Shown here piece by piece: positions 28,704 through 46,310 of a DNA stretch of 64,000 nucleotides. Each line of letters begins with the position of its first letter. The first letter of the stretch is position 1. The DNA is taken from the NCBI RefSeq assembly GCF_037126465.1, contig NC_088203.1, positions 57,759,581 through 57,823,580 of the forward strand, in the 5' to 3' direction. The position numbers and the translations under genes are program-made. The notes under the pieces are model-generated. The model did not search any database and had not been told where the DNA came from. It saw nothing but the letters and a program-made list of their open reading frames with translations. The stretch comes from Ornithodoros turicata (Eukaryota > Arthropoda > Arachnida > Ixodida > Argasidae).

Positions 28704-29672
28704 GCTGTGTGATAGAAGTGTGTGATCAATCATCACTTGTATTCATACCATGACTGTTGTGCTGTAGGGTTTTGTATGTTTCTAGCGGCAGCAGCAGTTT
28801 TCCGTCCCGTCAGGTAAGTGTACAAGTATCAGTTCGTGGCCGGTGTTGATTGTGAACCAAATTTGTTGTTGCTATGACCATTCTACTCGGTTTTACTCAC
28901 TTGTGTTTGAACATTACTAATTTGCGATTGAATGCCCTATTCAGACACATTTCTCTCCAGCGCTTCACAGACATCGCTTTCGCCGAAATTCAGTGGATTT
29001 TGAAGTCCACCGTTATCGTGGGTCACCCGAAGAACTCAGACCGCAACACGTCATTGACTGTCTATTGTGCCACGCGACACTGTGTGGAATAAAGCATGTG
29101 TACGTGTGGAATACTTCGCTACTGTGCGCGCGGGATGTTTTGTATGATTGTGTCGACACTGGATACCACTTTCAAGGTATGCATTTTCGGAATAAAATAG
29201 ATACATATATAGTTTTGCAGTACTTCATTTCGTGTATTTTATGCCTGTTGCGATTGAGCGAACAATAGAACGGAGAAATTCAACTTCGCTCAAGTCACAG
29301 AAAGTCCACAAAAAGTCTTCACATCATACGGGGATGGCGTTAATCTTGCTTCAGTAAATCATATATCTTCGTCGATTAAGAAGAATATACCGAGTGCCTC
29401 ACGGGTAACGGACGCGAAGCCTTTTAAAAAAGAACGAAGGTAGTTTCGTGGGTGACGCCGACTCATTGATAGCTGAGTCACAACAAAGTCAACAGAGAAA
29501 TTGAGATCACATATAACAAGACTTACACATAAAGGTCACACGAAATTTGTGTAAAGTATATGGAGTCTACAGAAAGACCTGTTACCTTCCTGTGTAATTG
29601 TCAACAAGACTTAAAGTTCCATAAGTCAACATAAAATCAATATGTCAGGTAAACACAAGAGTAGTAAGTACT

Positions 29673-29840
29673 GACCACGATTATCCGGAAACGCACAACT
29701 GGTCTGGACGCCATTAATTAGCAATTAGAGCTAATTGGGACCCCCCACATTAATCAGCACCCTCCAGGGAGCCATCACACTAATTGGGGAACGTCTATCT
29801 CGCGTCCAGACCAGTTGTGCATTTCCGGATAATCGTGGTC
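29673..29840. repeat. Terminal hairpin in left TIR
   Basis: The arm gaccacgattatccggaaac... of 39 bases and its complement at the other end are separated by about 90 bases. One mismatch (c/t) is present here; the right-hand copy (46130-46297) is perfect. The hairpin begins 13 bases from the element tip. It could be an integral replication structure or a MITE homogenised between the two repeats. Confidence 0.85.
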
Positions 29841-30198
29841 ATAAAAAATAAAAAATAGGCAGAAAATAGAATAAAAAGATAGAAATAGAGTGGAGAGAAA
29901 CAATTTATTCGAAAATCAACGATGCCGCGGCGAAGAAGCCGCTCCGCAACACCCGAGTGACCAGCGTCCGCCATGTTGGTAGTTTGCACCCAGCAGTTGC
30001 AGAGATCGACGACAGGTGGCCACTTAGTTGCAAGGCATCACACCAGATGGCGCCACCATCATAGCTCTAGACGAGAAAGACAGAACAAGATACTAGCGGC
30101 GGGTAAAAATGACAGCACTGCTAAGCAAGTCTAGGCATGCGAGAGAAAAGGTCTAACCGCTACTGCTAAACAGAAAACAGTACACATCGGGGGAAAAG

Positions 30199-30620
30199 GC
30201 TTACGGGGACGATCGCTTAGGCCTAACCCCAACACTACGCAGCTAACACAAGGCGGGAACCACACATTGCTAAACATGCGAGAAAAGGCTTAACACGAGC
30301 GCGGTCACCGCTAAACACGGCAAACATACGAGGAAAGAGGCTTACGGGGGCGATCGCTTAGGCCTAACCCCAACACTACGCAGCTAACACAAGGCGGGAA
30401 CCACACATCGCTAAACATGCGAGAAAAGGCTTAACACGAGCGCGGTCACCGCTAAACACGGCAAACATACGAGGAAAGATGCTTACGGGGACGATCGCTT
30501 AGGCCTAACCTCAACACTACGCAGCTAACACAAGGCGGGAACCACACATCGCTAAACATGCGTCAACAGGCTTGGACACCGCAAAACAAGTCTAAACATG
30601 CGAGAAAAGGCTTAACACGA
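30199..30620 (+). repeat. Three 141-bp tandem units in left TIR
   Basis: Units start at gcttacgggg(a/g)cgatcgc, at 30199, 30340 and 30481, with few differences. Each contains cttaggcctaac, aaggcgggaaccacaca, gctaaacatgcgag and ggtcaccgctaaacac. The same set is present inverted in the right TIR (about 45420-45790). Confidence 0.85.
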
Positions 30621-31030
30621 GCGCGGTCACCGCTAAACACGGCAAACATACGAGAAAAGGAGCGCGTCAAATCACTCACCTTTTCCCCCGCGGCAACTTC
30701 CAGGCAGAAACTGAGCGAGCGCGGAGAACACACACGTCTGCTCTCTACGAGATCCAGCCAGAAAGTGAGCGAGCGCGCGGAGCGCACGTCCGTCTTCCGC
30801 GACGGTCCGAGAGAAACTGAGAGAGGCGACGCGCAGCGGCCGCTATGGATGCGCGCGCGCCCTCTACTCCACCCGTCTGCGCATGCGCGCGCGCGCTGCT
30901 AGCTCCCTCTGCGCCGGCCGCGGGTGTTTTCGGTTTCGGCTCTCTGCTGCGCGCGCGCGCTCCTAGCGGCGACGGGTGGCTTTTCAGTTTCGCTTTCATT
31001 CTCCGTTCTTTGCGCGCGCGCGTTTATCTG

Positions 31031-31038
31031 TATAAAGG
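31031..31038 (+). promoter_or_regulatory. TATA box of left TIR
   Basis: TATAAAGG lies 59 bases upstream of the first ATG (31090), directly after a GC-alternating tract. The mirror copy in the right TIR (44935-44942, minus) has the same sequence and drives the orphan gene there. Confidence 0.75.
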
Positions 31039-31089
31039 CAGCGCGCACCGCGCTCGCGTCATCATTCTGACCGATACGTGGAAAACGCC

Positions 31090-31365
31090 ATGTGTGGTTT
31101 ATTCTCCTGCGTTTCTCGTCGTCGCAAGGAAAAGACAAAAAACGAAGAACTTCGCGAATTTATACGCGGCATCGTGGAGGAAGCCTTTCAAGTCCACCGT
31201 CTGGAATGGTTGCAAGCACGTCAAGAAATGTGTCAGGACAAGATGAAGACGCTCGACCGCATCTTAGCGGCGGACAGACTGGCGAAAAAGAAGTCCAACT
31301 TTAGCCTGGACAATCTGTATTGGGAACGCAGTTCCGATGTAGAGGACGACGACGAGGATGTGTAA
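31090..31365 (+). CDS. Orphan small protein next to left TIR
   Basis: This 91-residue protein of unknown family starts just inside the TIR. The start MCGLFSCVSRRRKEK has two cysteines followed by a basic stretch. The middle is predicted helical (ELREFIRGIVEEAFQVHR) and the tail is acidic (DVEDDDEDV). An aataaa at 31366 overlaps the end, so it probably has its own short transcript from the TIR TATA box. The ATG at 31090 is chosen because a longer frame would need GTG. Its position suggests an early or regulatory role, which is inference only. Confidence 0.6.
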   Translation: MCGLFSCVSRRRKEKTKNEELREFIRGIVEEAFQVHRLEWLQARQEMCQDKMKTLDRILAADRLAKKKSNFSLDNLYWERSSDVEDDDEDV

Positions 31366-31435
31366 ATAAAAGCAATGCATTTCTCCTCGAGTCTCAGTCT
31401 CTTCTTTCTCTTCGTGCAACGTGTACGCACGTAAC

Positions 31436-32071
31436 ATGTCTTCCCCCGAACCTTTTCGTTTCCGTCATCCTTTTCGCTGTATCTTAAGCGGTCCCTCCAT
31501 GTGCGGCAAATCTACGTTCGTTGCTAACGTGTTGAGGAACCTGAACGACGTGGTAGACAAGCCTCCGTCACAAATATTCTACGTGCAGAAATATGCTTCG
31601 CCGAGCATGCAGGACGAACTCGGGGACTCCGTAAAATTTACCAAGAAGCTACCGCGAGAGTGGGACACGTCGCGCGCTACGCTGATCGTCGTCGACGATC
31701 ACATGACCGACGCCGGTTCCTTGAAGGAGGTGACCGATCTTTTCATTCGGGGTTCTCACCACGCCAACGCGTCGATCTTCTTACTCGTTCAAAACATCTT
31801 TTTCGACAGTAGCCATTTTAGAACAATATCCTACAACGCCAGTTACGTCGTCCTGTGGCGCACCGTGCGCAGCGTGCACCAGATGGAACATTTCGGCCAA
31901 CAGCTATTTGGCAGAAAAAGATTGGAGTATTTTCTGGACGCATATAAACAAGCGATGTCGTCGCCCCACGCATATTTACTTGTGGATCTCCACAACTATA
32001 CGCACGAGGATCACAGGTTGCGTAGCAATATCTTTCCGGGAGAACGTCAATATATCTACGCTCCGAAATGA
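31436..32071 (+). CDS. ATP: DNA-packaging ATPase (FtsK/HerA-type)
   Basis: This protein of 211 residues pumps DNA into the capsid in Polintons and related viruses. Walker A is GPSMCGKST (residues 19-27) and Walker B is LIVVDD (83-88), with a downstream LLVQNIF segment. The conserved opening FRFRHPFRCILSGPSMCGKS is characteristic of the viral A32-like branch. The ATG at 31436 is preferred over an upstream GTG. The gene overlaps the next one by the 4-base ATGA, opening a chain of five overlapping genes. Length is typical for Polintons. Confidence 0.93.
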   Translation: MSSPEPFRFRHPFRCILSGPSMCGKSTFVANVLRNLNDVVDKPPSQIFYVQKYASPSMQDELGDSVKFTKKLPREWDTSRATLIVVDDHMTDAGSLKEVTDLFIRGSHHANASIFLLVQNIFFDSSHFRTISYNASYVVLWRTVRSVHQMEHFGQQLFGRKRLEYFLDAYKQAMSSPHAYLLVDLHNYTHEDHRLRSNIFPGERQYIYAPK

Positions 32072-32412
32072 ATCTCCGCCCTCACCTCACTTTACTCAAA
32101 GTACTCTCCACTCTACCCCCTCCACGCCGTCGCGACGTCTTGAGACGTTCGTCCTCGTCCGACATGAAACACCTCTCCGAAATTTGCCTCAATGTATTGA
32201 ACGGAAAGGTGGCTCTAGCTCCAGATACGTTCGCGCGTTTGAAGAAGCACAAACGCTTTTTACGACGGCTCGCCTACAAAAAGATTCACAAGAATCCGCA
32301 ACGTTTGAAGCGCTATCTGTCTCAGCAGCGAGGACAGGGCGTTCTTTCGTCGGTGGTTCCTCTCCTGCTTTCCTCCGTGTTGAACCTTTTCGCCAATGGC
32401 CAAGAGAATTGA
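32068..32412 (+). CDS. Basic protein with hydrophobic C-terminus (core/minor virion protein)
   Basis: This 114-residue protein is strongly basic in the middle (RLKKHKRFLRRLAYKKIHKN) and ends in a hydrophobic segment (VLSSVVPLLLSSVLNLF). A small protein with the pattern basic, QRG, hydrophobic tail is regularly found next to the ATPase and integrase in Polintons and adintoviruses, where it is thought to be a virion core or membrane-active component. That role is inferred from the pattern. It overlaps the ATPase by 4 bases and the next gene by 17 bases. Confidence 0.7.
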   Translation: MNLRPHLTLLKVLSTLPPPRRRDVLRRSSSSDMKHLSEICLNVLNGKVALAPDTFARLKKHKRFLRRLAYKKIHKNPQRLKRYLSQQRGQGVLSSVVPLLLSSVLNLFANGQEN

Positions 32413-32875
32413 AGTGACCACCTCCTCCTCCTCCTCCATCGGAAACATTCTTTCCTCGAAGAAGAGCGACGACGTCAAAGTGAAACTCATACTGCAAGCA
32501 CTGTATCGCATACTCAAGCAGTACGGATTTGACCCCTACGACAATAAAAACAAGGCGTCCGACGCTACAAATGACTTTGACTATTCGCTCCTCTCTCCAG
32601 AGGTGGACGAAGAGGAAGCGGAAAGGGTCGTCTCGGAATTAAAGAAGGTTCTTTCCTGGGATCGCGAGGGTTGTGTCTCCGTGTCGGGCAAGCCCATCAG
32701 ACACTCCTCCGTTTACGAACTCGTCAATTATTTGTTGCAACGTAAGACGGGAAAGAAACCTTCCTGGTTCCTCAAAGTCTCGAAACTATTGCGTCTGATT
32801 TCTCTACCCAAATCTCGCGAGCCTCAACAGCAGCAGCAGGCCTCCATTGCGTGGACGACTTATGGAGGGATATGA
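32396..32875 (+). CDS. Acidic protein upstream of integrase, unknown function
   Basis: This 159-residue protein has a Ser-rich start (TTSSSSSIGNILSSKK), two probable helices (VKLILQALYRILKQYGFDP and EEEAERVVSELKKVLSW) and a Gln run near the end. A protein of similar size with a repeated ELVNYL-type helix commonly precedes the integrase in Polintons, but I know no assigned function. It overlaps the upstream gene by 17 bases and the integrase by 14. A truncated chimeric copy lies at 28281-28703. Confidence 0.65.
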   Translation: MAKRIEVTTSSSSSIGNILSSKKSDDVKVKLILQALYRILKQYGFDPYDNKNKASDATNDFDYSLLSPEVDEEEAERVVSELKKVLSWDREGCVSVSGKPIRHSSVYELVNYLLQRKTGKKPSWFLKVSKLLRLISLPKSREPQQQQQASIAWTTYGGI

Positions 32876-33905
32876 GAAACCAGAGGGTGGTTTGGGGGGT
32901 GTGGAACGCTATAGAAAAGTGCATCACTTGAGCAAAAAGAAGGCTCTCGCCATTCTCAGAAAGCTGGATGCCTACACGCTCCACCATCCGGTCAGAAGAA
33001 AGTTTAATAGGAGACGCATCATCGCGCTCAAGATCAACGACGTGTGGCAAATGGACCTCGCCGATTTTTCAAAATACAAGAGATTCAACGGTGGCTACCG
33101 CTACATTCTCGTGGCAATCGATTCCCTCTCCCGCTTTCTGCGCACCCTCCCGCTAAAGACGAAGCGCCCCGCCGAAATGAAAAGGGCCATGATAAGACTT
33201 TTTCGGGGAGGTAACGTACCTACACGCATCTTTTGCGACAGAGGCGGGGAATTCTACAACAAGACCGTCAAGGAGTATCTCTCACGAAAGAAGGTACACA
33301 TGTATTCTACCTTCTCTCCAGTAATCAAAGCATCGCAGGCAGAGCGCGTCATACGCACTTTACGCAACAGAATATTCCGTTATTTTAGAGTAACGGGAAA
33401 ATACCACTTCGTTTCCGCGCTTCCCAAGATCGTGCGCGACTACAACACCACCAAACACAGGACTTTGGGCATCAGCCCGTCCGAAGTCATGTCCGAAAAC
33501 GAATTGGAGCTGTTCAATAAGATAAATGGGAAGCCCGTCGTACCCTCCGTGAAAAAGAAGCTCAAACTGGGGGATAAAGTGAGGGTCCTACTTCACAGAA
33601 AAGGTTTTCATAAGAGCTCGGAAGGGAGTTGGTCGCCTCAGATTTTCACCGTCTCCCGCCTGAGAGACACCTCTCCTCCCGTCGTACACCTGGAAGATTA
33701 CCGGGGTAAGGAAGTGGACGGATCTTTCTACCCGGAGGAGGTACTCGTCGTAACCCGAAACGCCAATCAGCCTTGGCCAGTAACGAAAGTGCTGAGAAAG
33801 AAGCAACTGAACGGTCAGAGCTTCTCCTTGGTTCGCTGGTTCGGTTACGACAAAGAACACGACAGTTGGGTTCCGAGCAGCGACGTGGTCAAGATTGGGA
33901 AATGA
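32862..33905 (+). CDS. INT: Retroviral-type integrase with chromodomain
   Basis: This 347-residue DDE integrase inserts the element and makes the 6-bp target duplication. An N-terminal His-rich region (HH at 21-22 and 41-42) precedes the rve core. Catalytic residues are D65 (VWQMDLADF), D126 (IFCDRGGEF) and E161 (ASQAERVIRTLRN). The C-terminus is a chromodomain (LVRWFGYDKEHDSWVPSSDV), which in this family probably guides insertion to chromatin. The ATG at 32862 overlaps the preceding stop by 14 bases. The end overlaps the penton start by ATGA. All catalytic residues are present, so it may be active. Confidence 0.93.
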   Translation: MEGYEKPEGGLGGVERYRKVHHLSKKKALAILRKLDAYTLHHPVRRKFNRRRIIALKINDVWQMDLADFSKYKRFNGGYRYILVAIDSLSRFLRTLPLKTKRPAEMKRAMIRLFRGGNVPTRIFCDRGGEFYNKTVKEYLSRKKVHMYSTFSPVIKASQAERVIRTLRNRIFRYFRVTGKYHFVSALPKIVRDYNTTKHRTLGISPSEVMSENELELFNKINGKPVVPSVKKKLKLGDKVRVLLHRKGFHKSSEGSWSPQIFTVSRLRDTSPPVVHLEDYRGKEVDGSFYPEEVLVVTRNANQPWPVTKVLRKKQLNGQSFSLVRWFGYDKEHDSWVPSSDVVKIGK

Positions 33906-35131
33906 TGTCAGACATCTACGTCCACCTGCTCTCGAACGCCAGCATGGATAAGTTTCCCTCGAATAAACTCAACGCCTTCACGGTAGCTTTCGACAGTCCG
34001 CTTCAGCTCTCGAATCGGTATAAAGTCGGTCTGATGGATCTCAGCATAAGTAACGATTTTTTAAATATCGGGTACGAAAGGCAAGATGCGAAAATCGAGG
34101 TTTCTTTCGAGGACACGGTGGAAGCCGGCAGAACTTTTCGTGTCACCTCGGATCTCGAGAGGGATTTGGGAAAAGCCCTTTCGGAATTCGACGTTTCTTT
34201 CGCGTACAATAAATCGCGATACGACTTCGTCTTACCCGTGGACGTGAAAGCCGTGGAATTGGACCCTCGGCTCGCGCAAGCGCTCGACGCCTGGCTAGCG
34301 TCCCGCGAAGCAGGTCGTGCGGTGAAACCCCCCAAATTGAGCGAACGCGAAGCCACCTCTATCTTATTGGAGCACGCCGCACCCGTCGCTTTCAGCGACG
34401 TCACTCTGAATTCGGAAACCACGTCCCTACGGAACACACTCAACAAGTATTTCCAGACGCACAAGCTGGACGCCTCGCTAGAATTCGCGGATAACGTGTA
34501 CTCTCTGAAAACACCGAAAGGGTTGCACGTACTGGAACCCTTTGTCAAGCTGCTACATCTCACACCCGTCGAGGGACACGAAGAAACGCTACGCGTCTCT
34601 CTCCCCATAGCGCGTCAATTTTCTTTCACGATCAAGACGAAAATTCCTCGATCTTTGCAAGTACATCTGCCTCCCGGCTATTATGCGACGCCGCAAGCAC
34701 TTCTAAATGCGATTAATCAGCGCGTAGGCGAACGCGCGCGCTTCAGCTTCGACGGAACCGAACAGAAATGTAAAATTCGGCTTTCCGAGGGCACCTCCAC
34801 CCTAAGACTTTCCGAGTACCTGGCCGTGCTTTTGGGCTTCGAATCGCGTACCGTGTTCACGGGGGATGAGGATGCCACGAGCTCCGTCGAGGTACTCCTG
34901 GAACCCCCGTTTCACAACATAATCGTGTACACGGATATCGTGGAACCCACGTACGTGGGGAGCGGGAAAAAACCTATATTAAAAATACTACCCTTTTATT
35001 ACGAGAAAGACAAGCACGTCGTCACCTACACGTTAGATAACATCCAGTATTTTAACCTGTCTCAATTCGAAATTCCTTCAGTGACGATCGTTCTCGCGGA
35101 CGAAACGGGAAGACGTTTGCCGTTGCCATAG
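33902..35131 (+). CDS. mCP: Minor capsid protein (penton-like), truncated by hAT-like insertion
   Basis: This protein of about 409 residues begins MMSDIYVHLLSNASMDKFPS, the Polinton minor capsid pattern in which an S-N-A-S-M/F-P block opens the N-terminal domain. It should form the pentameric vertices as a single jelly-roll protein. The start codons at 33902 and 33905 overlap the integrase stop. The present stop at 35129-35131 and part of the last codon come from the inserted element (35127-36053). On the far side the same frame stays open for 16 more codons, to a stop at 36109-36111 overlapping the next gene. The gene is therefore missing its original C-terminus. Function after truncation is uncertain. 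Confidence 0.85.
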   Translation: MMSDIYVHLLSNASMDKFPSNKLNAFTVAFDSPLQLSNRYKVGLMDLSISNDFLNIGYERQDAKIEVSFEDTVEAGRTFRVTSDLERDLGKALSEFDVSFAYNKSRYDFVLPVDVKAVELDPRLAQALDAWLASREAGRAVKPPKLSEREATSILLEHAAPVAFSDVTLNSETTSLRNTLNKYFQTHKLDASLEFADNVYSLKTPKGLHVLEPFVKLLHLTPVEGHEETLRVSLPIARQFSFTIKTKIPRSLQVHLPPGYYATPQALLNAINQRVGERARFSFDGTEQKCKIRLSEGTSTLRLSEYLAVLLGFESRTVFTGDEDATSSVEVLLEPPFHNIIVYTDIVEPTYVGSGKKPILKILPFYYEKDKHVVTYTLDNIQYFNLSQFEIPSVTIVLADETGRRLPLP

Positions 35132-36053
35132 ATTGAGAAGTTACCCGTCAAAAAGAACTCGTTACAAGTTAAGTTACCGTGTGAAAAATGTAACTAAGTT
35201 AATAACGAAGTTCTTCAGCCTGAAATGTAACTCGCAGTTACTGAGTTACTTAAAAAAAAGAACGAGTTACTTCCAAGTTACTTGGGAGTTGGGACACAAA
35301 ATAGCATTACGAAGGTGCAGCGCGCGTGAGCAGTTGAGTTGGACCCTGAGTTGCCTGCGGAGGAGTGCAACACGCTTAGATCATTTTCGTTTATGTCCAA
35401 CAATGGACCTCTCCCTGTTTGTAAACAAATGACGTCATAGTGTTCGACAGCGCCACATATTTGGTAGAATTGAACTACGCTCGAAGCTGGAGGTGAACAA
35501 GGTCGCACACGAAAGCCACGGTCTTGAGGGGATTACGATATGGTTCCTTAAAGGGACGCGACCCTCGGTCCTGCTTTTCTTTCAATGGGAGGCAGCGAAC
35601 AAGTGCCCGTTCGTGGAACCCAGCCCTCTTCTTCCAATTTGTTTCGGTTCAGTCTGTCTACCAATGTCATGATGACGTTTCTCTGGTAGAGGTCTACTCG
35701 AACGCTTTGCATCTTACTCCCTGTGGGCGTACAATGGTTCAGCTTCATTTCAATGGCAGCGGTTCTTACTTCCTCAATAAAATACTGTCATTGATTGAAT
35801 ATCACGTTTTATGGTAAAAAAATGCCATGAAGGAACCGGAGAGAAAGCAAGAAAATATGTGGATGTGAGTGAAAAGCGAGTTAAAAGTAACTTGGAACTT
35901 AACTTAAGTTACTTTGGCAAAGTTACCTGAAAAAGGAACGAGTTCCTCTGAAAGTTACCACGGCGCAAAAGTACCGAGTTAAGTTACAAGTTACCAAAAA
36001 AAGGAACTTAGTTACAGTAACGAGTTACTTGTAACGAGTTACCTCGAACTCTG
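35127..36053. mobile_element. Non-autonomous hAT-like element in penton gene
   Basis: The 927-bp element is flanked by the 8-bp direct repeat gccgttgc (35119-35126 and 36054-36061). Its ends read catagattgag and, inverted, cagagttcgag. An 8-bp target and CA...TG ends fit the hAT superfamily. Both subterminal regions (35136-35285 and 35870-36045) are packed with gttac/aagtta motifs in opposite orientations. No transposase frame is present. Confidence 0.85.
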
Positions 36054-36100
36054 GCCGTTGCGGTCCAAAGGCAGAACCAATCTAACGTTGCATTTCAAAT

Positions 36101-36430
36101 ATGTACCGTAATTCCCCCAAAATAATTCCCGTGTACACGGGACCCCTTTTCCAACGAGGGGGCGGTGTGTTGAGCAACATATCCAAGTTTATCGTTCCCA
36201 TCTGGCAGCAAATAAAACCGATCGCCAAGAGAACGTTGAAGCGCTTGGCGCGGAATTTGGCCGATGGCGAAGGAATATCGCGCGCAGTAAAAAAGACGGC
36301 CATAGCAACGGGGAGAGACGTGCTGGATTCCATGGAGGGCTCTGGAAACAACAATGGGAAGAAACGCCGCAAACGACAACAAAAGGCGCCGACACACGAC
36401 GCACCTGCAGATATCTTTGGTACGCCGTGA
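36101..36430 (+). CDS. Small basic Gly-rich virion protein (pVI/core-like)
   Basis: This 109-residue protein has a start containing GPLFQRGGGVLSNISKFIVP, then an amphipathic basic helix (IAKRTLKRLARNLADGEGIS), then a very basic tail (KKRRKRQQK). Polintons and adintoviruses carry such a protein just before the major capsid gene; the combination of GGG, an amphipathic helix and a basic tail recalls adenovirus membrane-lytic or DNA-binding core proteins. That assignment is by analogy. Its start overlaps the original end of the penton frame. Confidence 0.65.
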   Translation: MYRNSPKIIPVYTGPLFQRGGGVLSNISKFIVPIWQQIKPIAKRTLKRLARNLADGEGISRAVKKTAIATGRDVLDSMEGSGNNNGKKRRKRQQKAPTHDAPADIFGTP

Positions 36431-36460: not shown

Positions 36461-37750
36461 ATGACGTCAACGAAAGGAAAAATACAGACGCCGATCTGTC
36501 TAACGAGTGATGTGATGATATTCGAACCCCCTTCCATTCAATACGGCGTGGAAGATACTTCGTACCAACTTTTTTATCCGGTCAACGGAGTAAATAATTC
36601 CGTGATCGAGTTTTGTATTCAAAATTTGCAAAGGGCACACTTGGATCTCTACGGTAGTTTCGTCTCTTTGACCGTGCGCATTGTTCGCGACGACGGGGAA
36701 GAAATGGACGAGAATGATGTCGTTTTCCCAATAAACCACCTGTTGAGCGGCATGTTTAAGACGGTCACCGTTTATGCGAACAACAAGCTCGTCAGTTCCA
36801 ACGAGTTGTACGCCTACAGGAGTATTTTGGACGTCGTGCTTCATTCCATGCCCACGGCTCAAGAAACAGTGCACGCGGCTGGACTTTATGTCGAGGACGA
36901 CGAACATTTAAAGGACGATTACGACGTCTCGTCTCGCGGTCCGAAACAACGTTACGAAGCGACGAAGGGTGGAAAATACTTTAACCTGGTCGGTCAGATC
37001 AATACCGACCTGTTTCAACAGCCGCGCCTGATGGTACCTGCCGTCGAAATTCGCGTCGTTTTCCTGTTAAACAACGACGAATTTAAACTCGTATCGGTCC
37101 CCAAAGACAAGAAAACGTACAATTACGAGGTGGACATTAAAGAAATGACGTTACACTTGAAAAAGGTGACGCTGGCACCTTCCCTATTTTTGGAATACGA
37201 GCGGCGGCTTCAGACCACGCCGGCCATCTACGTGTTACGCGGATTGGAAACCAAGGTGCGGAGCTTGAGTGCCGGGAGCTTGGACGCTCACTTTGAAAAC
37301 GTTTACCCCGAAAGGGTGCCTTCCAAATTATGCGTCGCCCTGCTCGCCACGTCCGACTTTCTCGGCGACATCCAATCGAACCCCTACAAATTCCGCCGTT
37401 ACGACCTGTCTCATTCGATGCTCTCCGTGGACGGCCAGCAAGTGCGAGCCGAGTACGACTTTCAGAACGACCTCGTCAAAATTCCCTACTTTAACTTCTT
37501 GCAAGAACTGGGAGAGAAACATTTCAAGTATAGCTACGAGCGATTTAAAACGAACGGGTTCCTTCTCTACTTTAACTTGGACGTGGACAAGTGTTCTTCT
37601 CCTTCGCATTTGAACGAGTGGCGAAAAGGAAACGTTCGCCTGCAATTACGCTTCGCTAAAGCCCTTCCACACGCGGTCACCGTCCTCTTGATTTCCGAGT
37701 GTCCCAAGCTCATGTACGTCGACAAGGACCGTACGGTCACCTTCCCATAA
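36461..37750 (+). CDS. MCP: Major capsid protein (double jelly-roll)
   Basis: This 429-residue protein matches the Polinton major capsid family. The N-terminal part has QYGVEDTSYQLFYPVNGVNN and FPINHLLSGMFKTVTVYANN, typical of the first jelly roll. The later part (YDLSHSMLSVDGQQVRAEYD and FLLYFNLDVDKC) matches the second. It should trimerise into hexon-like capsomers. The start at 36461 lies 30 bases after the preceding gene, and a TGACGTCA palindrome overlaps the start codon. It is followed after 6 bases by the protease. The frame is intact. Confidence 0.9.
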   Translation: MTSTKGKIQTPICLTSDVMIFEPPSIQYGVEDTSYQLFYPVNGVNNSVIEFCIQNLQRAHLDLYGSFVSLTVRIVRDDGEEMDENDVVFPINHLLSGMFKTVTVYANNKLVSSNELYAYRSILDVVLHSMPTAQETVHAAGLYVEDDEHLKDDYDVSSRGPKQRYEATKGGKYFNLVGQINTDLFQQPRLMVPAVEIRVVFLLNNDEFKLVSVPKDKKTYNYEVDIKEMTLHLKKVTLAPSLFLEYERRLQTTPAIYVLRGLETKVRSLSAGSLDAHFENVYPERVPSKLCVALLATSDFLGDIQSNPYKFRRYDLSHSMLSVDGQQVRAEYDFQNDLVKIPYFNFLQELGEKHFKYSYERFKTNGFLLYFNLDVDKCSSPSHLNEWRKGNVRLQLRFAKALPHAVTVLLISECPKLMYVDKDRTVTFP

Positions 37751-37756
37751 GAAAAG

Positions 37757-38197
37757 ATGTACGAGAGCGACATCTTGGAACTCGTGTCCCTGAACCCCCT
37801 CGCTTCCTCCATGCTGAGAGGCATTTGTGCTTCAAACGAAGCCTTCGTTTTACGCAAGCCCGGTTATTTAATCATCAATACGGAAGAGCGAAGAAGACGC
37901 GGGCAGCACTGGGTGCTCTACCTGAAAAACTACGACGGGTCTGCCGTGTTTTTCGACAGCTACGGACTTCCCCCCATCGAAGCAAACCTTCGAAGGACTT
38001 TACCTGTAGTGGACGAGTATAACGACAAGTGTATTCAATCGCCTTTTTCGCCTTACTGCGGGCTTTTTTGTATCTACGTAGCCACGCGCATGTCGAAACG
38101 CTACAGCTTGAAAAGTTGTGTATCCATGTTTTCCTGTAACCTCGAAGAGAATGACGAAACAATAAAACGTCTCCTCGTGAGCGAACTCGTTTCGTAA
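37757..38197 (+). CDS. PRO: Adenovirus-type cysteine protease (capsid maturation)
   Basis: This 146-residue protease of the Ulp1/adenain class processes virion proteins. Catalytic candidates are H51 (RGQHWVLY), D67 (FFDSYG) and C101 (YCGLFCIY), with Q94 as the oxyanion residue (KCIQSPFSPYCG). Spacing and order fit the family. The gene lies 6 bases after the major capsid gene and ends tail to tail with the minus-strand orphan at 38218. An aataaa near 38160 within the gene may serve as polyadenylation signal. Confidence 0.9.
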   Translation: MYESDILELVSLNPLASSMLRGICASNEAFVLRKPGYLIINTEERRRRGQHWVLYLKNYDGSAVFFDSYGLPPIEANLRRTLPVVDEYNDKCIQSPFSPYCGLFCIYVATRMSKRYSLKSCVSMFSCNLEENDETIKRLLVSELVS

Positions 38198-38217: not shown

Positions 38218-38613
38218 TCACGACATACACAAGACCCTTGCAAGACGATCTTCCAACGTGCTGACCCGACGCTCGCCGTCGTCGTCGCCGGTCTGCACCG
38301 TGACGTCGAGGGATGGGTGGAGAAGCCAGTAGCGACGGACGATAGGTCGGTTGAAACCCACGTTGATGAGACACGGGTCGACTGTCTCTCCTCGTCTATA
38401 CTTTTCCAGCAGCTCGAGCTTGTAATCTACGAAACGCTTCATTTTCTTTGCAATCTTCCCACTGACGGTGAACAGACGTAAGGGTATCGTCTTGAGAATC
38501 GAGCGAAAGTCTCCCTCGCAGCTATCGCCGTGAATATAATCGCGTAATCGCAGCAAGTCCCGATACATTCGTGTTTGCACAAAGGTGGCAAACCTCTGCT
38601 CGGGCGTCATCAT
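38218..38613 (-). CDS. Orphan Polinton protein, minus strand
   Basis: This 131-residue protein is of unknown family. It is rich in Arg and Leu, with helical segments (RMYRDLLRLRDYIHG, GKIAKKMKRFVDYKLELLEK) and a central NVGFNRPIVRRYWLLHPSLD. It starts at tandem ATGs (38613 and 38610) and converges on the protease gene. An aataaa on the minus strand just beyond the stop (about 38205) supports a real transcript end. I see no zinc motif or signal peptide. Confidence 0.6.
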   Translation of the reverse strand: MMTPEQRFATFVQTRMYRDLLRLRDYIHGDSCEGDFRSILKTIPLRLFTVSGKIAKKMKRFVDYKLELLEKYRRGETVDPCLINVGFNRPIVRRYWLLHPSLDVTVQTGDDDGERRVSTLEDRLARVLCMS

Positions 38614-39368: not shown

Positions 39369-39376
39369 CATTTATA
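39369..39376 (-). promoter_or_regulatory. TATA box for gene A
   Basis: On the minus strand ctataaat lies about 30-40 bases before the gene A start. This is the left half of a divergent control region shared with the polymerase gene. Confidence 0.6.
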
Positions 39377-39401: not shown

Positions 39402-39640
39402 TGACGTCATTGAACGTGTTTAAACATGTTAAGACGTGTTTGAACATGTTTGAACATGGGCGGCGAAGTCGCCCCTGGACACACTCGTTCCTCTCTCACC
39501 CTCTCTATGATGTCATTGAACGTGTCTGAACATGTTTGGACGTGTTTGAACATGTTGTGACGTCACTGAACATGTCTGAACATGTTTGGACGTGTTTGAA
39601 CATGTTTGAACGTGTTTGAACATGTTGTGACATGTGTAGA
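39402..39640. promoter_or_regulatory. Array of 10-bp p53-like half-sites with CRE palindromes
   Basis: Decamers of the form gaac(a/g)tgt(t/c)t are joined without spacers. Exact RRRCATGYYY half-sites include 39568-39577 and 39578-39587, which together form a zero-spacer pair; others are near 39441, 39527 and 39598. Others have cgtg in the core. TGACGTCA palindromes lie at 39402-39409 and 39558-39565. The array sits between the divergent TATA boxes at 39369 and 39931. Binding by p53-family and CREB/ATF factors is inference from consensus. Confidence 0.6.
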
Positions 39641-39689
39641 CACGAACCCCGCAATACGAAAAACGTCACGCAGTACAAATTAGATTGGT

Positions 39690-39938: not shown

Positions 39939-40173
39939 GTGCGCTGGTTCTACGACGATTGACAGGAAGCCCACGAGGGGCATCCATCCACGACACGAGG
40001 CGTTTCGTGGACCAAAATGTAAGTTGACCGTCTCTGCTGTGAGAGTGTATTCTATGTATGACATTGTTTTTCAGGAACCAATAGCCGCTGTCACCGCATG
40101 ACACTGACCACAGGGACTCATCCCATCCTCTCTCATCATCAACAATCTCAAGCGTTCCTCAACTGAAGGGAAA

Positions 40174-43100
40174 AGTGAGCATTGTTTCGTGAGGGGGAAT
40201 CTCGTACTGATTTTGTTTGACCGCAGTGCCGCGCTGTCTCGTATGTCAGTACGACCCCATCGATGCCATGCTCGTGGCCGTAGAAAGAGAGCACGAAGCT
40301 AGAATAGAGAATCTCGGTAATAGCCCAGTCGTCCTTTCAGATGACGACGACGACGACAGAGTCAGTAGTCCGCCTTTCATAATACCTGAAACGGACGACG
40401 ACGACGACGAATTGCTCATGTGGGAAGGGGATCAGTCGTATGCAGATTTCATTCCTCTGTCTGGTAGGGTTCGAGATGAATCACCAGATGCAAGCCCAGA
40501 ATTTTGAAACGAAGCTGAGCCTGTCCAGGGTCGTAGAATCGTTGAATTGAGAGAACACGTCGTAGAGAATCATCCCTCCGTCACGGAGAGACGATTCCTT
40601 TTCTTCCTTTTTTTGTCACAGACGAGGCATTTGACGGAACGGCTACTAGGTACACGCTTCTCTGTTCCCCGCACGACGACAACGTCGACGATTTGCGACT
40701 CTATCTACCGAGCATAGCTCCAGTAATCACGCGCGTCCTCGAAGCTTATCCCATGCCTTTCAAATTTTGTCTGTGCTCGAAGGCGCTCATGGTTAAGGAC
40801 GGAGCCGACGGGTTGACTTCGCATCTCCTTCACGTGAACCTTCACATGAGAGTCGTTCATAACCGCCAAGAAATCGAAGGCGCGATAAATGCTGCCATCG
40901 CAGAGTCCTCGCAACGCGTTGAAAACTATGCGAGAGAAGGGTCTGGTTTCACCTCGAACGACGTCCAATGTGTCGACTTAAAACTAACGCGCTTAAAACC
41001 GAAGCGGATAGGATGCACGATCGAGCTTCCCGAGCTGCTAAAGAGAAAAACAAAGACTCTCACAAACGTCAAACTTCCGCCGAATCACGAAAACGAGTGT
41101 TTCAAGTATAGCGTGCTGGCACTCTTACATCCTTTGAGGAGCAAACCAAACCTGCATGTAAGATACCACAAGTACATGAATCCTTCCCATCCGGAGACTG
41201 GCCGCCCTGCTTCCCAGTCACTTACGAAGACATTACGCTGTGGGAGAGAAAAAACAAAATCTCCGTCTACATCTACGTGTTCGACGAGCAGAAGAGTTCG
41301 ATATCTACCGGACGGGTTCCCTGCACGCTCTATAAGGATAAAGTCCACCTGCTCGAGGTTAGGGAGCATTTCTATGGGATCCGAAAATTTAGCACTTTCA
41401 TGGGACGAAGTGACTACTTTTATTGCGAGAAATGCACGTCCGGTTACGGAACGAGAGAGGCATTGCAGCAACACGAACGTCTGTGTCGAGACGTAAACGA
41501 AGTGATTCTCGAAATGCCAAACGCGGGGGAGTGTGTCTCCTTCAACAAGATACAGTACATGCATCCCTACCCCTATTTCGCGGTGTTGGACACGGAGAGC
41601 GTTTTGGAAAAAAACGCGCTCGTGAAGGACGCCTCGAGTGTGCACAGGATGAGCTCGTACAGCATTGTGCTAGTGAGAAGTTGTGATGGGAAAATAATGG
41701 ACGTAGATGGCTATTTGGGACCCAACGCGGCAGAGAAATGCTTGCTCTCGCTCAAGCGATTTAGTGATCAAATCGATAGGTTGAACAGTTGTCCCGCGCC
41801 GTTGGTCATGAGTATGGAAGACCACTTTCGGCACGCGAGCGCTACACACTGCGAATTTTGTGGAATCGAATTTAACCGACATACGCGGAAGGTATCGCAT
41901 CACGACCACACCCGCTTCGTAGAGTCCGGTTCTTCGAATTTTGTCGCGACGCTGTGTGATACGTGTAACCTTACGTGTCGTAATACCAAAGAACTCGTCG
42001 TGTGCGTGCACAACCTGCAGTACGATTTGAGCTCCCTTCTCCGCCACATGCACGTTCTAAATCTGGGCGAGCCGTGGATCTTAGCTTCGAGCTCGGAAAA
42101 GATAAGAGGGTTCAACATTGGCGATCTCCATTTCCGCGATACCACGCAGTTTTTCAACCTCTCCTTGTCGAACCTGGTGGAAACCCTGCTCGCCAGCGGT
42201 GGTGAAAGCGCGTTTCATTGTACCCGTCAAATGTTTGGTGACCGTTTCCGACGCCTCCTCAGGAAGGGCATTTACCCGTACACCTTCGTCGACAGTTTCG
42301 AAGCGTACAATTTGCCCGCACTACCGCCAAAGGAAGCTTTCAAAAGCGACCTGAACGACCAAGAGATCACGGACGAGGACTATCAGTACGCCCTCGAGAT
42401 TTTCGAATTGTTCGAATGTAAGAACCTCGGCGGTTACACGCGTCTCTACGTCACGCTCGACGCCTGTCAGCTCTGCGACGTCGTACTGTATTTCAGGAAG
42501 ATTGCGCTAGAGACGGATAGGTTAGATATCCTACGCACAGTGTCCCTCGCCAGTTACGCGTGGAGCAGCGCTCTGAAGCTCACCAAAGTCAAACTCGAGC
42601 TCATGAGCGATCGCGAGATGTACGAAACGATCGAGAAGGGAATCAGGGGAGGCATTTGTAACAGCTTCCACAGATACTGTCGGGCTAATCACGAGGGGTG
42701 CGACGATTACGATCCCCAGCAAGAAAAGACTTTTATCCAGTACCTCGACGTGAACAGTTTGTACCCGTACGCGATGACTTTCCATCTCCCGACAGGTGGT
42801 TTTGAGTGGGTCGATCCTTCGAGGTGGAGCGAGATCGATTTTCTCAACATTCCTCACGATTCGGAAGTGGGTTACGTGTACGTGGTAGACTTGTCATATC
42901 CCGAAGAACTGCACGCGCTCACTAGGGATTTTCCCCTGGCACCCGAACACAGGTGCGTGGACGAGAACGAACTCTCCCCCTACCAACGCCACCTGAAAGA
43001 TGCGTTGGCGCTGAACGCCCCTTCCACAACGAAACTCTTGCTGACGTGCTACGACAAAGAACGCTACGTCGTTCATTATGCACTGCTCGCTCTGTACGTG

Positions 43101-44114
43101 AGGTTGGGCATGAAAATAAAACGTGTTCACAGCATCCTCTCGTTCCGCCAAGACAACCTTTTGCGAACCTTCGTGCAGAGAAACGTCACGTTGAGGAATG
43201 CCGCGAGCACGAAATTCGAGCGACTTCTGTACAAAACCATGTCGAACAGCACGTTCGGTAAGTCGATACAAAATGTGAGACGGATGAAAAAGTATGCCCT
43301 AGCCTACGACAAAGAAAGCGCGCTCCGAAAAGCTAGCTCTGTCGACAGTCAGCATTTTCACATTCTGAGTGATAAGTGCATCTTGTACGAGATGAAACAA
43401 CGCCGCATCAAATGCACGCACCCCCTTTACGTGGGCTTTGCCATTCTTGAAATATCCAAAGTCCGAATGTACAGCTTCATCTACGAGTCGCTCTTTTCTC
43501 GCTTGACATGTCCAGTGCAATTGATCTATAGCGACACGGACAGCGTAATTTTTTCTCTCACGTGTGAAAGCCTGGAAGAGCAGCTGATGAAGATTGAGAG
43601 TGAGTTAGATCTGTCTTCCTATCCGCCGGACCACCCACTTTTCAACGACGAGCACGCGAATCAGATGGGGTACTTCAAAGACGAGACGGGGGGCGGAGTT
43701 ATTCAGGAAGTCGTAGCCATCCGAGCGAAAATGTACAGCATTCTCTTGGCTGGGACACACAAACAGATCGCGAGAGCCAAAGGAGTTAAGAAAGACGTGG
43801 TGAGGAAACATTTATTGCACGAAGTGTACCGAGATTCTCTGTTCAATGAAAAGGCGGTCTCTCAGAAGCAGTGCACCATCCAGAGTATAAAGCAAACGAT
43901 GTACACCATTTCGAGACTCAAGAAGAGCTTGGTCCCCTACGACGACAAACGCTATCTCGTGGATGCCGTACACTCCTTCCCTTATGGGAGCTGCGAATAC
44001 GGTAAGCTTTCCTAGTGTTTTGACGCGTATAGGATTACGATAGTACTCCCTCTTTGTGCAGCACCGGAAAACCCGGAAGAGAGCCCGAGACCGTTGACGT
44101 CAGGCATCGAGTAA
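40174..44114 (+). CDS. POLB: Protein-primed DNA polymerase B, multi-exon, with apparent frameshift
   Basis: This is the replicative polymerase of Polintons. Proposed exons are 5' UTR about 39960-40018 and 40075-40174, then coding 40227-40463, 40622-44001 and 44062-44114; phases agree at every junction. The first ATG (A40174 with T40227-G40228) would be created by splicing and opens PRCLVCQYDPIDAM. Exonuclease motifs are FAVLDTES and HNLQYDLSSL. Polymerase motifs are YLDVNSLYPYAM, MSNSTFGKSIQN and YSDTDSVIF. A zinc-like CEFCGIEF...CDTCNLTC region lies between. The conserved frame shifts by -1 between about 41110 and 41200 (ECFKYSVLALLHP before, DWPPCFPVTYEDITLWERKN after), which would inactivate the gene unless it is an assembly error. 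Polyadenylation signal aataaa is at 44151. Confidence 0.88.
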
Positions 44115-44439
44115 CCGCGGAACAAAGAGCTGCACGCGCATGTAATCGAGAATAAAAGTTCTAGTCGAGACATCCCTCTCTCTCTCTCTCTCTCTCTCGC
44201 AGACAGGAGCAGCACGGGACATCGTGGCAGTGTGGTAGCGGAATGGGTGTACGAAAAGAATTACCATTCCGTCATCGTGCTGACGCAGTGACCCGCGCAA
44301 TGACGACGCTGCGATGAGGATACCCCATATCCTTTCTCTTGAGGCAAGTCAGGGAGGGTGCAGGCATCTATCGACCGAGTCCTTTGTATGTATTCAATAA
44401 AGATGTTTCAGTGAAAGAACACACAGAGTCTCGTCAAAG
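44115..44439. other. Polymerase 3' region
   Basis: It contains aataaa at 44151, a (ct)n microsatellite at about 44173-44198 ending in tcgcag, and a second aataaa at about 44398. The (ct)n-cag could act as a splice acceptor for an alternative 3' exon. I see no protein gene on the plus strand. Confidence 0.45.
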
Positions 44440-44898
44440 TTATTCGGACTGTTTAATGCGTTGCATGTCAATAACCAAGCGGTATTTCAATAAATCAGTG
44501 ACAAAGTTGACGATGTAGACTGCTTGCAAATGTCGCTGCTTCCGCAGGGCGTGCTTAATATGAGCGATGGCACGAGCGAGAAGGTCCACGATGTCTGCAG
44601 CGATGTAGTTGAATTCTGCGTTGGCCAAGCTCACAAATTCGCTCATCAGTCCCAGGGGTCCGTCAGGAACCGTTATGCAGACGTTCTTGTAACGGGCGTA
44701 AATTCGACGCACCATCTCCTGCAGCGGCCCCGGCGAGATCTCTCCTATATTGCCAAAGCCTACCATGTCTATCACGTAGCGAAAAGCAGTGATGACGAGC
44801 TCGTTGCGGGGACTTTCGCCGTTGAAACATTCCTTCTCCACTTCTTCCCAAGAAGCGTGGGTACGGGAACAATTTTGTAAAGAGTGGTAGCTGAACAT
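44440..44898 (-). CDS. Orphan protein driven from right TIR
   Basis: This 152-residue protein is of unknown family. It is largely helical (FRYVIDMVGFGNIGEISPG; IAADIVDLLARAIAHIKHAL; NFVTDLLKYRLVIDMQRI) and has no zinc motif, signal or membrane segment. The ATG at 44898 lies 44 bases from the TIR TATA box (44942-44935 on the minus strand). It is preferred to a GTG two codons earlier. It is the right-hand counterpart in position, not in sequence, of the orphan at 31090. Its promoter duplication suggests coordinate early expression, which is inference. Confidence 0.65.
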   Translation of the reverse strand: MFSYHSLQNCSRTHASWEEVEKECFNGESPRNELVITAFRYVIDMVGFGNIGEISPGPLQEMVRRIYARYKNVCITVPDGPLGLMSEFVSLANAEFNYIAADIVDLLARAIAHIKHALRKQRHLQAVYIVNFVTDLLKYRLVIDMQRIKQSE

Positions 44899-44908
44899 CT
44901 TCACGTAG

Positions 44909-46310
44909 TGATGACGCGAGCGCGGTGCGCGCTGCCTTTATACAGATAAACGCGCGCGCGCAAAGAACGGAGAATGAAAGCGAAACTGAAAAGCCACCCG
45001 TCGCCGCTAGGAGCGCGCGCGCGCAGCAGAGAGCCGAAAACACCCGCGGCCGGCGCAGAGGGAGCTAGCAGCGCGCGCGCGCATGCGCGGACGGGTGGAG
45101 CAGAGGGCGCGCGCGCGCATCCATAGCGGCCGCTGCGCGTCGCCTCTCTCAGTTTCTCTCGGACCGTCGCGGAAGACGGACGTGCGCTCCGCGCGCTCGC
45201 TCACTTTCTGGCTGGATCTCGTAGAGAGCCGACGTGTGTGTTCTCCGCGCTCGCTCAGTTTCTGCCTGGAAGTTGCCGCGGGGGAAAAGGTGAGTGATTT
45301 GACGCGCTCCTTTTCTCGTATGTTTGCCGTGTTTAGCGGTGACCGCGCTCGTGTTAAGCCTTTTCTCGCATGTTTAGACTTGTTTTGCGGTGTCCAAGCA
45401 TGTTGACGCATGTTTAGCGATGTGTGGTTCCCGCCTTGTGTTAGCTGCGTAGTGTTGAGGTTAGGCCTAAGCGATCGTCCCCGTAAGCCTCTTTCCTCGT
45501 ATGTTTGCCGTGTTTAGCGGTGACCGCGCTCGTGTTAAGCCTTTTCTCGCATGTTTAGCGATGTGTGGTTCCCGCCTTGTGTTAGCTGCGTAGTGTTGGG
45601 GTTAGGCCTAAGCGATCGCCCCCATAAGCCTCTTTCCTCGTATGTTTGCCGTGTTTAGCGGTGACCGCGCTCGTGTTAAGCCTTTTCTCGCATGTTTAGC
45701 GATGTGTGGTTCCCGCCTTGTGTTAGCTGCGTAGTGTTGGGGTTAGGCCTAAGCGATCGTCCCCGTAAGCCTTTTTCCCCGATGTGTACTGTTTTCTGTT
45801 TAGCAGTAGCGGTTAGACCTTTTCTCTCGCATGCCTAGACTTGCTTAGCAGTGCTGTCATTTTTACCCGCCGCTAGTATCTTGTTCTGTCTTTCTCGTCT
45901 AGAGCTATGATGGTGGCGCCATCTGGTGTGATGCCTTGCAACCAAGTGGCCACCTGTCGTCGATCTCTGCAACTGCTGGGTGCAAACTACCAACATGGCG
46001 GACGCTGGTCACTCGGGTGTTGCGGAGCGGCTTCTTCGCCGCGGCATCGTTGATTTTCGAATAAATTGTTTCTCTTCACTCTATTTCTATCTTTTTATTC
46101 TATTTTCTGCCTATTTTTTTATTTTTTATGACCACGATTATCCGGAAACGCACAACTGGTCTGGACGCGAGATAGACGTTCCCCAATTAGTGTGATGGCT
46201 CCCTGGAGGGTGCTGATTAATGTGGGGGGTCCCAATTAGCTCTAATTGCTAATTAATGGCGTCCAGACCAGTTGTGCGTTTCCGGATAATCGTGGTCAGT
46301 ACTTACTACT
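44909..46310 (-). repeat. Polinton right TIR
   Basis: The 1,402-bp inverted counterpart of 29660-31064 differs by a few bases and a 3-bp length difference. It contains the TATA box (44935-44942), (GC)n tracts, 141-bp units (about 45420-45790) and the terminal hairpin (46130-46297). It is followed by cacaag at 46311-46316. Confidence 0.93.
46130..46297. repeat. Terminal hairpin in right TIR
   Basis: The arms 46130-46168 and 46259-46297 are perfect 39-nt inverted complements around a 90-base loop region, which has smaller palindromes (aattagctctaatt). It ends 13 bases from the element tip. Confidence 0.9.

What the first reader, a model, noticed from the sequence alone, without database searches (positions are those of the whole stretch)
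29660..46310. Complete, recently inserted Polinton with full virion gene set
Sequence shows a 6-bp target duplication, matching 1.4-kb inverted repeats, and open frames for ATPase, integrase, protease, both capsid proteins and polymerase. Known biology: Polintons with capsid genes are candidate integrated viruses. It also carries four orphan or novel small genes.
Basis: partly seen in the sequence, partly recalled or inferred. Interest (0 to 1): 0.85.

Follow-up and report, generated by a model that had tools for sequence, protein, structure and literature searches.

The report
Recently amplified tick Polinton provirus family
A soft-tick chromosome carries a virus-like Polinton with capsid genes; this copy is damaged, but it belongs to a large, young family whose copies show traces of linear viral DNA replication and a promoter-like array that might respond to the tick's DNA-damage regulator p53.

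Summary
"Complete" is not right. The polymerase lies in three frames, and 35127-36053 is a 927-bp hAT-like insert absent from 12 of 12 other copies compared. A perfect 4.1-kb tandem duplication also repeats the left end. The genome is Ornithodoros turicata.

New here: (1) The family is large and young: 432 terminus matches genome-wide, control 0; 13 copies differ by a median 0.67%. (2) 15 of 19 other elements checked have perfect, different 6-bp duplications. (3) Variants shared between copies are mostly synonymous, capsid genes included. (4) Two copies are palindromic right-arm dimers, each inserted as a unit between its own 6-bp duplication, read as integrated snap-back genomes. (5) Beside a TATA box lies an array of 10-bp units fitting p53/p63-type half-sites, in 20 of 20 stretches read; a p53 response is inferred only.

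Verdict: a new Polinton member with two unusual features.

The parts
29654..29659 (.). left target-site duplication CACAAG
   Evidence: same hexamer after the right end
46311..46316 (.). right target-site duplication CACAAG
29660..31064 (+). left terminal inverted repeat, tip AGTAGTAAGTAC
   Evidence: 98.6% to the right one; 11 mismatches, 3 gap openings in 1408 columns
44909..46310 (-). right terminal inverted repeat
29672..29841 (.). subterminal 40-bp inverted repeat, 90-bp loop (mirrored at 46129-46298)
   Evidence: I13, I14
30192..30573 (.). 2.7 copies of a 141-bp tandem repeat in the inverted repeat (mirrored at 45407-45785)
31436..32071 (+). candidate packaging ATPase, 211 aa
   Evidence: Pox_A32 below cut-off; stop-free over at least 95% in 12 of 12 other copies
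32068..32412 (+). small gene p114, 114 aa
   Evidence: 11 of 12
32396..32875 (+). small gene p159, 159 aa
   Evidence: 11 of 12
32862..33905 (+). integrase, rve core plus probable C-terminal chromodomain, 347 aa
   Evidence: rve 1.9e-9 (above cut-off), Chromo 1.8e-4 (below cut-off); (9 of 12)
33902..35131 (+). candidate penton (minor capsid) gene; the last codons run into the insert
   Evidence: position; (9 of 12); fold not tested
35127..36053 (.). 927-bp hAT-like insertion, 8-bp duplication GCCGTTGC at 35119-35126 and 36054-36061
   Evidence: absent from 12 of 12 copies compared; hAT type recalled
36101..36430 (+). small basic protein, 109 aa (core/pX-like by recalled resemblance)
   Evidence: 10 of 12
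36461..37750 (+). major capsid protein, 429 aa
   Evidence: 8 of 12; selection
37757..38197 (+). adenain-type cysteine protease, 146 aa
   Evidence: Peptidase_C5 21.5 bits (cut-off 21.3); (12 of 12)
38218..38613 (-). orphan gene m131, 131 aa
   Evidence: 10 of 12; no Pfam
39371..39376 (-). minus-strand TATA box, about 32 bp from the array start
   Evidence: in 19 of 20 fetched stretches; the 20th is the arm of a palindrome broken here
39402..39640 (.). promoter-like array: p53/p63-type decamers (GAACATGTTT / GAACGTGTTT) with TGACGTCA sites
40211..40507 (+). polymerase N-terminal piece (frame 1 of 3)
   Evidence: compared by eye
40546..41496 (+). polymerase piece, residues 131-330 of relative P0005 (frame 2 of 3)
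41112..44015 (+). polymerase piece with exonuclease and palm motifs (motifs recalled), residues 335-1269 of P0005 (frame 3 of 3)
44440..44898 (-). orphan gene, 152 aa, predicted all-helical at low confidence
24512..28611 (+). upstream copy of a perfect 4100-bp tandem duplication (second copy 28627-32726, 15-nt filler 28612-28626); holds a truncated second left end of the element

Best explanation
The element is a somewhat decayed copy of a young, high-copy Polinton (adintovirus-like integrated virus) of the soft tick Ornithodoros turicata. The family multiplied as a linear extrachromosomal DNA copied from its ends by a protein-primed polymerase, and was put into the chromosomes by its retrovirus-type integrase, which makes 6-bp target duplications. 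Shown: the anatomy; the duplications at many sites; the low divergence; a synonymous excess among variants shared by copies, capsid genes included; and two palindromic right-arm dimers integrated as units. Inferred: that the dimers are snap-back products of strand-displacement replication, that replication is protein-primed, that particles are or were made, and that the decamer array is a promoter or enhancer of the minus-strand (possibly early) unit answering to a p53-family factor.
For: Ends, duplications and repeats. Host: the genome's contig lengths C3 108618500, C4 83779437 and C1 235596939 equal those listed for NCBI O. turicata proteins P0005, P0001 and P0006. Copies: 40 of 40 scored polymerase hits at 98-100%, out of 806 first-look candidates; 432 terminus 34-mers, control 0; median pairwise difference 0.67% over 78 pairs of 13 copies. 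Integrase signature: 13 of 20 hit places directly plus both palindromes, i.e. 15 of 19 distinct other elements. Selection: shared variants 44 synonymous to 17 non-synonymous, singletons 69 to 89 (one a stop), Fisher p = 1.6e-4. Capsid plus penton: shared 18 to 6, p = 7e-7 against a neutral ratio. Palindromes: both outer ends are the terminus tip, flanked by AACGCT / AACGCT and AACTTG / AACTTG; arms 99.94% and 99.3% alike; the C4 arms differ by 1 in 1495 from each other and by 3-11 from seven copies.
Against: This copy cannot make a full polymerase as assembled. Of nine genes scored, all but ATPase and protease fail the 95% stop-free test in at least one of 12 other copies. No particle, transcript or extrachromosomal DNA was seen here. 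Polymerase-core shared variants are 0 synonymous to 3 non-synonymous among 8 copies, so selection is not shown there. The capsid model has pLDDT 42 and its matches have TM-scores of about 0.2-0.35, so they are weak evidence. For the C3 palindrome the arms are no closer to each other (7 mismatches in 1441) than one arm is to some other copies (6 in about 1500), so single-molecule origin is shown clearly only for C4. Four of 19 elements showed no perfect duplication in the pieces fetched. The 13-kb size class of terminus pairs was not read.
Confidence: 0.85

Rival explanations
1. The element spreads only as a transposon inside the germ line; the capsid genes are passengers and no particles form.
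For: The copies studied are all in one genome, and 4 of 12 fail the stop-free test in the capsid gene. Particles of Mavericks had not been observed by 2021 (abstract of PMC8097293).
Against: Capsid and penton variants shared between copies are strongly synonymous (18 to 6), so capsid function mattered while the family spread.
Confidence: 0.2
2. The palindromic copies and the 4.1-kb tandem duplication are assembly artefacts.
For: Perfect or near-perfect repeats of several kb are where assemblers fail; 24512-28611 is identical to 28627-32726 over 4100 bases. Reads were not available.
Against: Both palindromes end at the exact element tip, have unlike host DNA outside, and share the same 6-bp duplication on both sides; a chimeric read would mirror the flank too. 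The tandem duplication has a 15-nt filler that repeats junction words (TTCTGC, TAATT), as end-joining repair leaves.
Confidence: 0.1
3. The decamer array is not a p53-type response element but an iteron-like array bound by an element protein, or a bZIP (TGACGTCA) enhancer with neutral spacer repeats.
For: TGACGTCA or a one-base variant opens the blocks; 8 TGACGTCA in the window against 1.4 expected. Block number varies among copies, as in viral enhancers (analogy recalled). The p53 motif was noticed after the repeat, so shuffles do not test it, and strict RRRCWWGYYY is not significant over the window (26 against 18.1; 5 of 100 shuffles reach it). Host p53 was not looked up because the genome tool did not complete (16 calls from 36 to 144).
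Against: Decamers abut with no spacer, as p53 response elements may, and alternate CATG and CGTG cores; p63, p73 and Drosophila p53 accept A or G at that position (passages of PMC2807882; PMC4323202). RRRCRTGYYY occurs 32 times against 17.4, 0 of 100 shuffles. 8 matches of the double decamer at 7 places, all in the array, 0 in 100 shuffles.
Confidence: 0.5

Closest known systems
Polinton / Maverick elements of animals (vertebrate survey PMC8097293, capsid paper PMC4028283; passages)
   Same: 6-bp target duplications, (AGT)2//(ACT)2-type ends, 15-20 kb, PolB, rve integrase, ATPase, protease, two capsid genes.
   Different: Long repeats (1.4 kb, near the 1,447-bp maximum of that survey's intact elements), 141-bp subrepeats, a subterminal 40-bp inverted repeat, the decamer array, and integrated palindromic right-arm dimers. 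About 216 tip pairs is many, though vertebrate families of 280 and 172 defective copies are reported there.
Adintoviruses (Adintoviridae, Orthopolintovirales)
   Same: Integrase with probable C-terminal chromodomain, adenovirus-like protease and capsid genes, PolB (passages of PMC11071296). 453 adintovirus-like insertions are reported in ixodid (hard) tick genomes (passages of PMC10675110).
   Different: A soft tick; near-identical copies with most frames open. [quoted passage not shown]
Adenovirus-type protein-primed linear genomes and their defective palindromic genomes (recalled)
   Same: Short terminal tandem repeat (AGTAGT), PolB, palindromic end dimers.
   Different: Here the dimers are integrated in chromosomes between 6-bp duplications.
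Endogenous retroviruses with p53 response elements (named in a passage of PMC4323202)
   Same: A resident viral element carrying p53-type sites.
   Different: A DNA virus-like element; a phased array in an internal promoter-like stretch; arthropod host; response untested.

Membership tests
Polinton / Maverick | Terminal inverted repeats with AG...CT-type ends | tested here: met
Polinton / Maverick | 6-bp target-site duplication | tested here: met
   window copy; 15 of 19 other elements
Polinton / Maverick | Family B polymerase of the viral/organellar type | tested here: met
   DNA_pol_B_2 1.3e-18; relatives with one frame exist; this copy's gene is split
Polinton / Maverick | Protein-primed replication | not testable with these tools
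   inferred from the polymerase type and the (AGT)2 ends
Polinton / Maverick | Retrovirus-type (rve) integrase | tested here: met
   rve 38.1 bits, cut-off 32.6
Polinton / Maverick | Adenovirus-type cysteine protease | tested here: met
   Peptidase_C5 21.5 bits, cut-off 21.3; weak PDB match to adenain, E 0.23
Polinton / Maverick | FtsK/A32-type packaging ATPase | tested here: inconclusive
   Pox_A32 18.6 bits below cut-off 22.8; Walker motifs read by eye (recalled)
Polinton / Maverick | Double-jelly-roll major capsid protein | tested here: inconclusive
Polinton / Maverick | Single-jelly-roll penton | not tested
   position one gene upstream of the capsid gene fits (passage); fold not predicted
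Polinton / Maverick | All conserved frames open ('intact' element) | tested here: not met
   polymerase in three frames, insert at 35127-36053
Adintoviridae | Integrase with C-terminal chromodomain | tested here: inconclusive
   Chromo 21.8 bits, E 1.8e-4, below the Pfam cut-off 25.1
Adintoviridae | PolB with OTU-like N-terminal domain and hexon recognisable by BLAST to references | not tested
   references not at hand; weak fold matches to two adintovirus proteins (ranks 3 and 19)
p53-responsive element | Two or more abutting RRRCWWGYYY / RRRCRTGYYY decamers | tested here: met
   in the window; decamers in 20 of 20 stretches from 19 elements
p53-responsive element | Host has a p53-family protein that activates through it | not tested
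   PF00870 search of the genome did not complete

The most novel reading that the evidence does not exclude
This is an animal DNA provirus wired to the host's genome-integrity alarm: p53-family protein binds a phased decamer array and switches on a TATA-driven early unit, so that the provirus leaves a damaged cell as an SOS-induced prophage does. The integrated palindromic dimers are then fossil defective genomes of such episodes.
Probability: 0.25. Interest if true: 0.9.

Novelty: new member of a known kind. Interest (0 to 1): 0.68.

Why it matters
Maverick/Polinton particles had not been observed in the papers whose abstracts I saw (PMC8097293 and PMC7805220), and whether the capsid genes are used is an open question. 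A young family with near-identical copies lets selection on capsid genes be measured, and here it is strong on variants shared between copies. Palindromic dimers inserted with proper target duplications are a physical trace of linear extrachromosomal replication that can be looked for in other genomes. If the decamer array proves p53-responsive, it would be a DNA-damage switch in an animal DNA provirus.

Tried and rejected
Capsid fold: the 5-sequence alignment gave pLDDT 42, so the fold matches are only supportive; a PDB profile search found nothing. The 152-aa orphan model (pLDDT 47) was too poor to search. PDB search with the polymerase piece gave no meaningful match. The viral-contig scan with the capsid alignment confirmed no relative. 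Pfam found nothing above cut-off for ten further frames. No tRNA or Rfam family in the window. A first search for left ends failed in 20 of 20 copies because I had placed them by the window's length; this exposed the 927-bp insert. Glucocorticoid-type sites were considered for the array and dropped (spacing does not fit; recalled consensus). Programmed frameshifting in the polymerase was considered and thought unlikely: of the four loci read in coding orientation (the window's own included), two have one frame of 1270 codons (the four loci on the other strand were not read in reverse). That the family occupies other tick species could not be tested; three capsid relatives at 46-58% and one orphan relative at 55% come from short contigs without a species name.

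Not answered: the contents of the 13-kb size class (10 of the 33 terminus pairs within 30 kb that I paired by hand among the 100 places listed, of 432); the second polymerase subfamily (P0007, 49%); host p53; total count of capsid genes; a genome-wide search with the array.
Full report
The element. Position 29660-46310 is flanked on both sides by CACAAG, and its 1.4-kb ends are inverted repeats with 11 mismatches and 3 gap openings in 1408 columns. The ends read AGTAGTAAGTAC...GTACTTACTACT, the (AGT)2//(ACT)2 type that a survey of vertebrate Mavericks describes together with perfect 6-bp duplications (passages of PMC8097293). Inside each repeat are 2.7 copies of a 141-bp unit and a subterminal 40-bp inverted repeat around 90 bp.

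Genes. Left to right on the + strand: ATPase, p114, p159, integrase, candidate penton, a small basic protein, major capsid, protease; then on the - strand m131; then on the + strand the polymerase; last, on the - strand, a 152-aa orphan. Pfam supports integrase, protease (narrowly) and polymerase above cut-off, and the ATPase and the integrase's chromodomain below it. Nothing in Pfam matches the capsid, and ten further frames have nothing above cut-off. The capsid model is poor (pLDDT 42). Still, 43 viral models match at E <= 0.001: 19 are named capsid proteins (giant viruses, a virophage, adintoviruses and others), 10 have no name, and 14 are other or uncharacterised; TM-scores are low. The best match is an uncharacterised bracovirus protein at 22% identity. 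The penton is named from position and recalled resemblance only.

This copy is damaged. A 1285-aa O. turicata polymerase (P0005) matches the window in separate frames: residues 131-330 at 99% in frame 40546-41496 and residues 335-1269 at 95% in frame 41112-44015, while its N-terminus corresponds, by eye, to frame 40211-40507. Of the four loci read in coding orientation, the window's own included, two have one frame of 1270 codons and two do not; the four loci on the other strand were not read in reverse. The stretch 35127-36053 is missing from 12 of 12 other copies compared and is bounded by an 8-bp duplication, GCCGTTGC; its ends resemble hAT termini (recalled). It overlaps the last codons of the penton frame.

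The duplication. 24512-28611 equals 28627-32726 over 4100 bases without a difference, with 15 nt between. It contains 1.0 kb of flank and 3.1 kb of the element's left end. The filler repeats junction words, which favours a real end-joining event over an assembly slip, but reads were not available.

The host and the family. The genome searched has contigs of exactly the lengths given for NCBI O. turicata proteins that match capsid and polymerase. All 40 scored polymerase hits were 98-100% identical; 806 first-look candidates were seen and only 40 scored, so 40 is a lower bound. The 34-base element tip with up to 3 mismatches occurs 219 times forward and 213 times reverse; the reversed control occurs 0 times, so about 216 pairs of tips, including shortened and palindromic elements and the window's three tips. 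Only 100 of the 432 places were listed; pairing them by hand within 30 kb gave 33 pairs: 10 of 15.1-15.8 kb, 10 of 13.0-13.5 kb, 13 of other sizes including the window's 16.65 kb. What the 13-kb class lacks could not be read.

Integration. For 20 other polymerase hits (19 elements) I fetched both ends. Thirteen show a perfect 6-bp duplication, all with different hexamers. The seven hits that failed include three arms of two palindromic elements, whose duplications were then shown, leaving four elements unresolved: 15 of 19. In 11 copies whose repeats could be paired, they were 97.1-100% identical over the 47-448 bases compared. Thirteen copies, the window's included, differ pairwise by 0.13-1.44%, median 0.67%, over window 31370-35100. 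No calibrated tick rate was used, so only 'young' is claimed.

Selection. Across the window copy and 12 others (8 copies for the polymerase core), variants seen in two or more copies are 44 synonymous and 17 non-synonymous; singletons are 69 and 88, plus one stop. The difference is significant (Fisher p = 1.6e-4). For capsid plus penton alone the shared variants are 18 to 6 and the singletons 24 to 28 (p = 0.026 between them; p = 7e-7 for the shared against a neutral ratio that weights transitions twofold). Singletons too are below neutral (p = 0.002), as expected if terminal branches include active time. Copies are related, so sites are not fully independent. The polymerase core gives no support (0 to 3 shared). 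Stop-free coverage of at least 95% in 12 other copies: ATPase 12, p114 11, p159 11, integrase 9, penton 9, pX 10, capsid 8, protease 12, m131 10.

Palindromic copies. Two pairs of head-to-head polymerase hits are single elements. On C4 the two arms (3522 bases of the inner stretch compared, 2 mismatches) surround a 602-base unique centre; both outer ends are the element tip and the host hexamer AACGCT stands on both sides. On C3 the arms meet inside the decamer array with no loop, are 99.3% alike, and AACTTG stands on both sides. C4's arms are closer to each other (1 mismatch in 1495) than to any of seven copies compared, the window's included (3-11); for C3 this is not so (7 in 1441 against 6-15). 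A right-arm dimer with its own target duplication was most simply palindromic before insertion, so the integrase took a linear palindromic molecule. Snap-back copying of a displaced strand makes such molecules in adenovirus-type replication (recalled). I searched 'Polinton' with palindromic, hairpin, snap-back, defective or Maverick (1,080 papers held three of the terms, 12 listed) and adenovirus with palindromic or snapback terms (3 papers). The listings show no title about this in Polintons; I read listings only, so this is weak evidence of novelty.

The array. At 39402-39640 blocks opening with TGACGTCA, or a one-base variant of it, are followed by abutting 10-bp units such as GAACATGTTT and GAACGTGTTT. 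p53 binds two RRRCWWGYYY decamers; p63, p73 and Drosophila p53 also accept G at position 5, and p63 is reported to prefer RRRCGTGYYY (passages of PMC2807882; PMC4323202). In the window the double decamer RRRCRWGYYY x 2 matches 8 times at 7 places, all here, against 0 in 100 shuffles. RRRCRTGYYY matches 32 times, 11 of them plus-strand sites in the array, against a mean of 17.4 (0 of 100 shuffles reach 32). The strict motif RRRCWWGYYY is not significant over the whole window (26 against 18.1; 5 of 100 shuffles reach it). The motif was chosen after seeing the repeat, so these figures show clustering and do not test binding. The array is present in 20 of 20 fetched stretches, from 19 elements, with 5-14 decamers and changing block numbers. 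A minus-strand TATA box stands 32 bp away in 19 of 20; the exception is the arm of the palindrome that breaks in the array. A p53 switch is therefore an inference from sequence. The paper search p53 + Polinton held 12 papers, 10 listed, none about such sites by its listing; the one passage read concerns another virus group.

Conclusion. It is not an intact copy. It is a new member of a known kind, adintovirus-like by its probable chromodomain. My capped literature searches listed no paper titled on Polintons in soft ticks, and the two that I checked for the words hold nothing on them in soft ticks (passages of PMC7542975, and PMC8696169). Ixodid ticks are reported to hold 453 adintovirus-like insertions (passages of PMC10675110). 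The unusual points are selection on capsid genes, integrated palindromic dimers and the decamer array.

Noticed in passing
window 24512-32726: Perfect 4.1-kb tandem duplication with a 15-nt filler that repeats junction words; gives the element a second, truncated left end.
   Followed up: partly
window 55620-59436 (-): Non-LTR retrotransposon-like frames (779 aa reverse-transcriptase-like, 308 aa zinc-finger/coiled-coil-like), by eye only.
   Followed up: no
window 5262-8721 (-): Fragments resembling Gypsy-type integrase and reverse transcriptase, by eye only.
   Followed up: no
window 51966-52436 (-): 156-aa frame resembling a THAP domain, by eye only.
   Followed up: no
window 11999-12466 and 15093-15562: Two 80% alike copies of a stretch with coding-looking frames (about 150 aa), possibly a duplicated exon or gene.
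   Followed up: no
genome-wide, terminus pairs: A size class of 13.0-13.5 kb (10 of 33 hand-paired) and short pairs of 3.9, 6.8 and 7.1 kb: possible second form and deleted derivatives. Contents not read.
   Followed up: no
window 29672-29841 and 46129-46298: Each inverted repeat begins with a 40-bp inverted repeat around 90 bp, right behind the 12-bp tip; possibly a replication or packaging signal.
   Followed up: no
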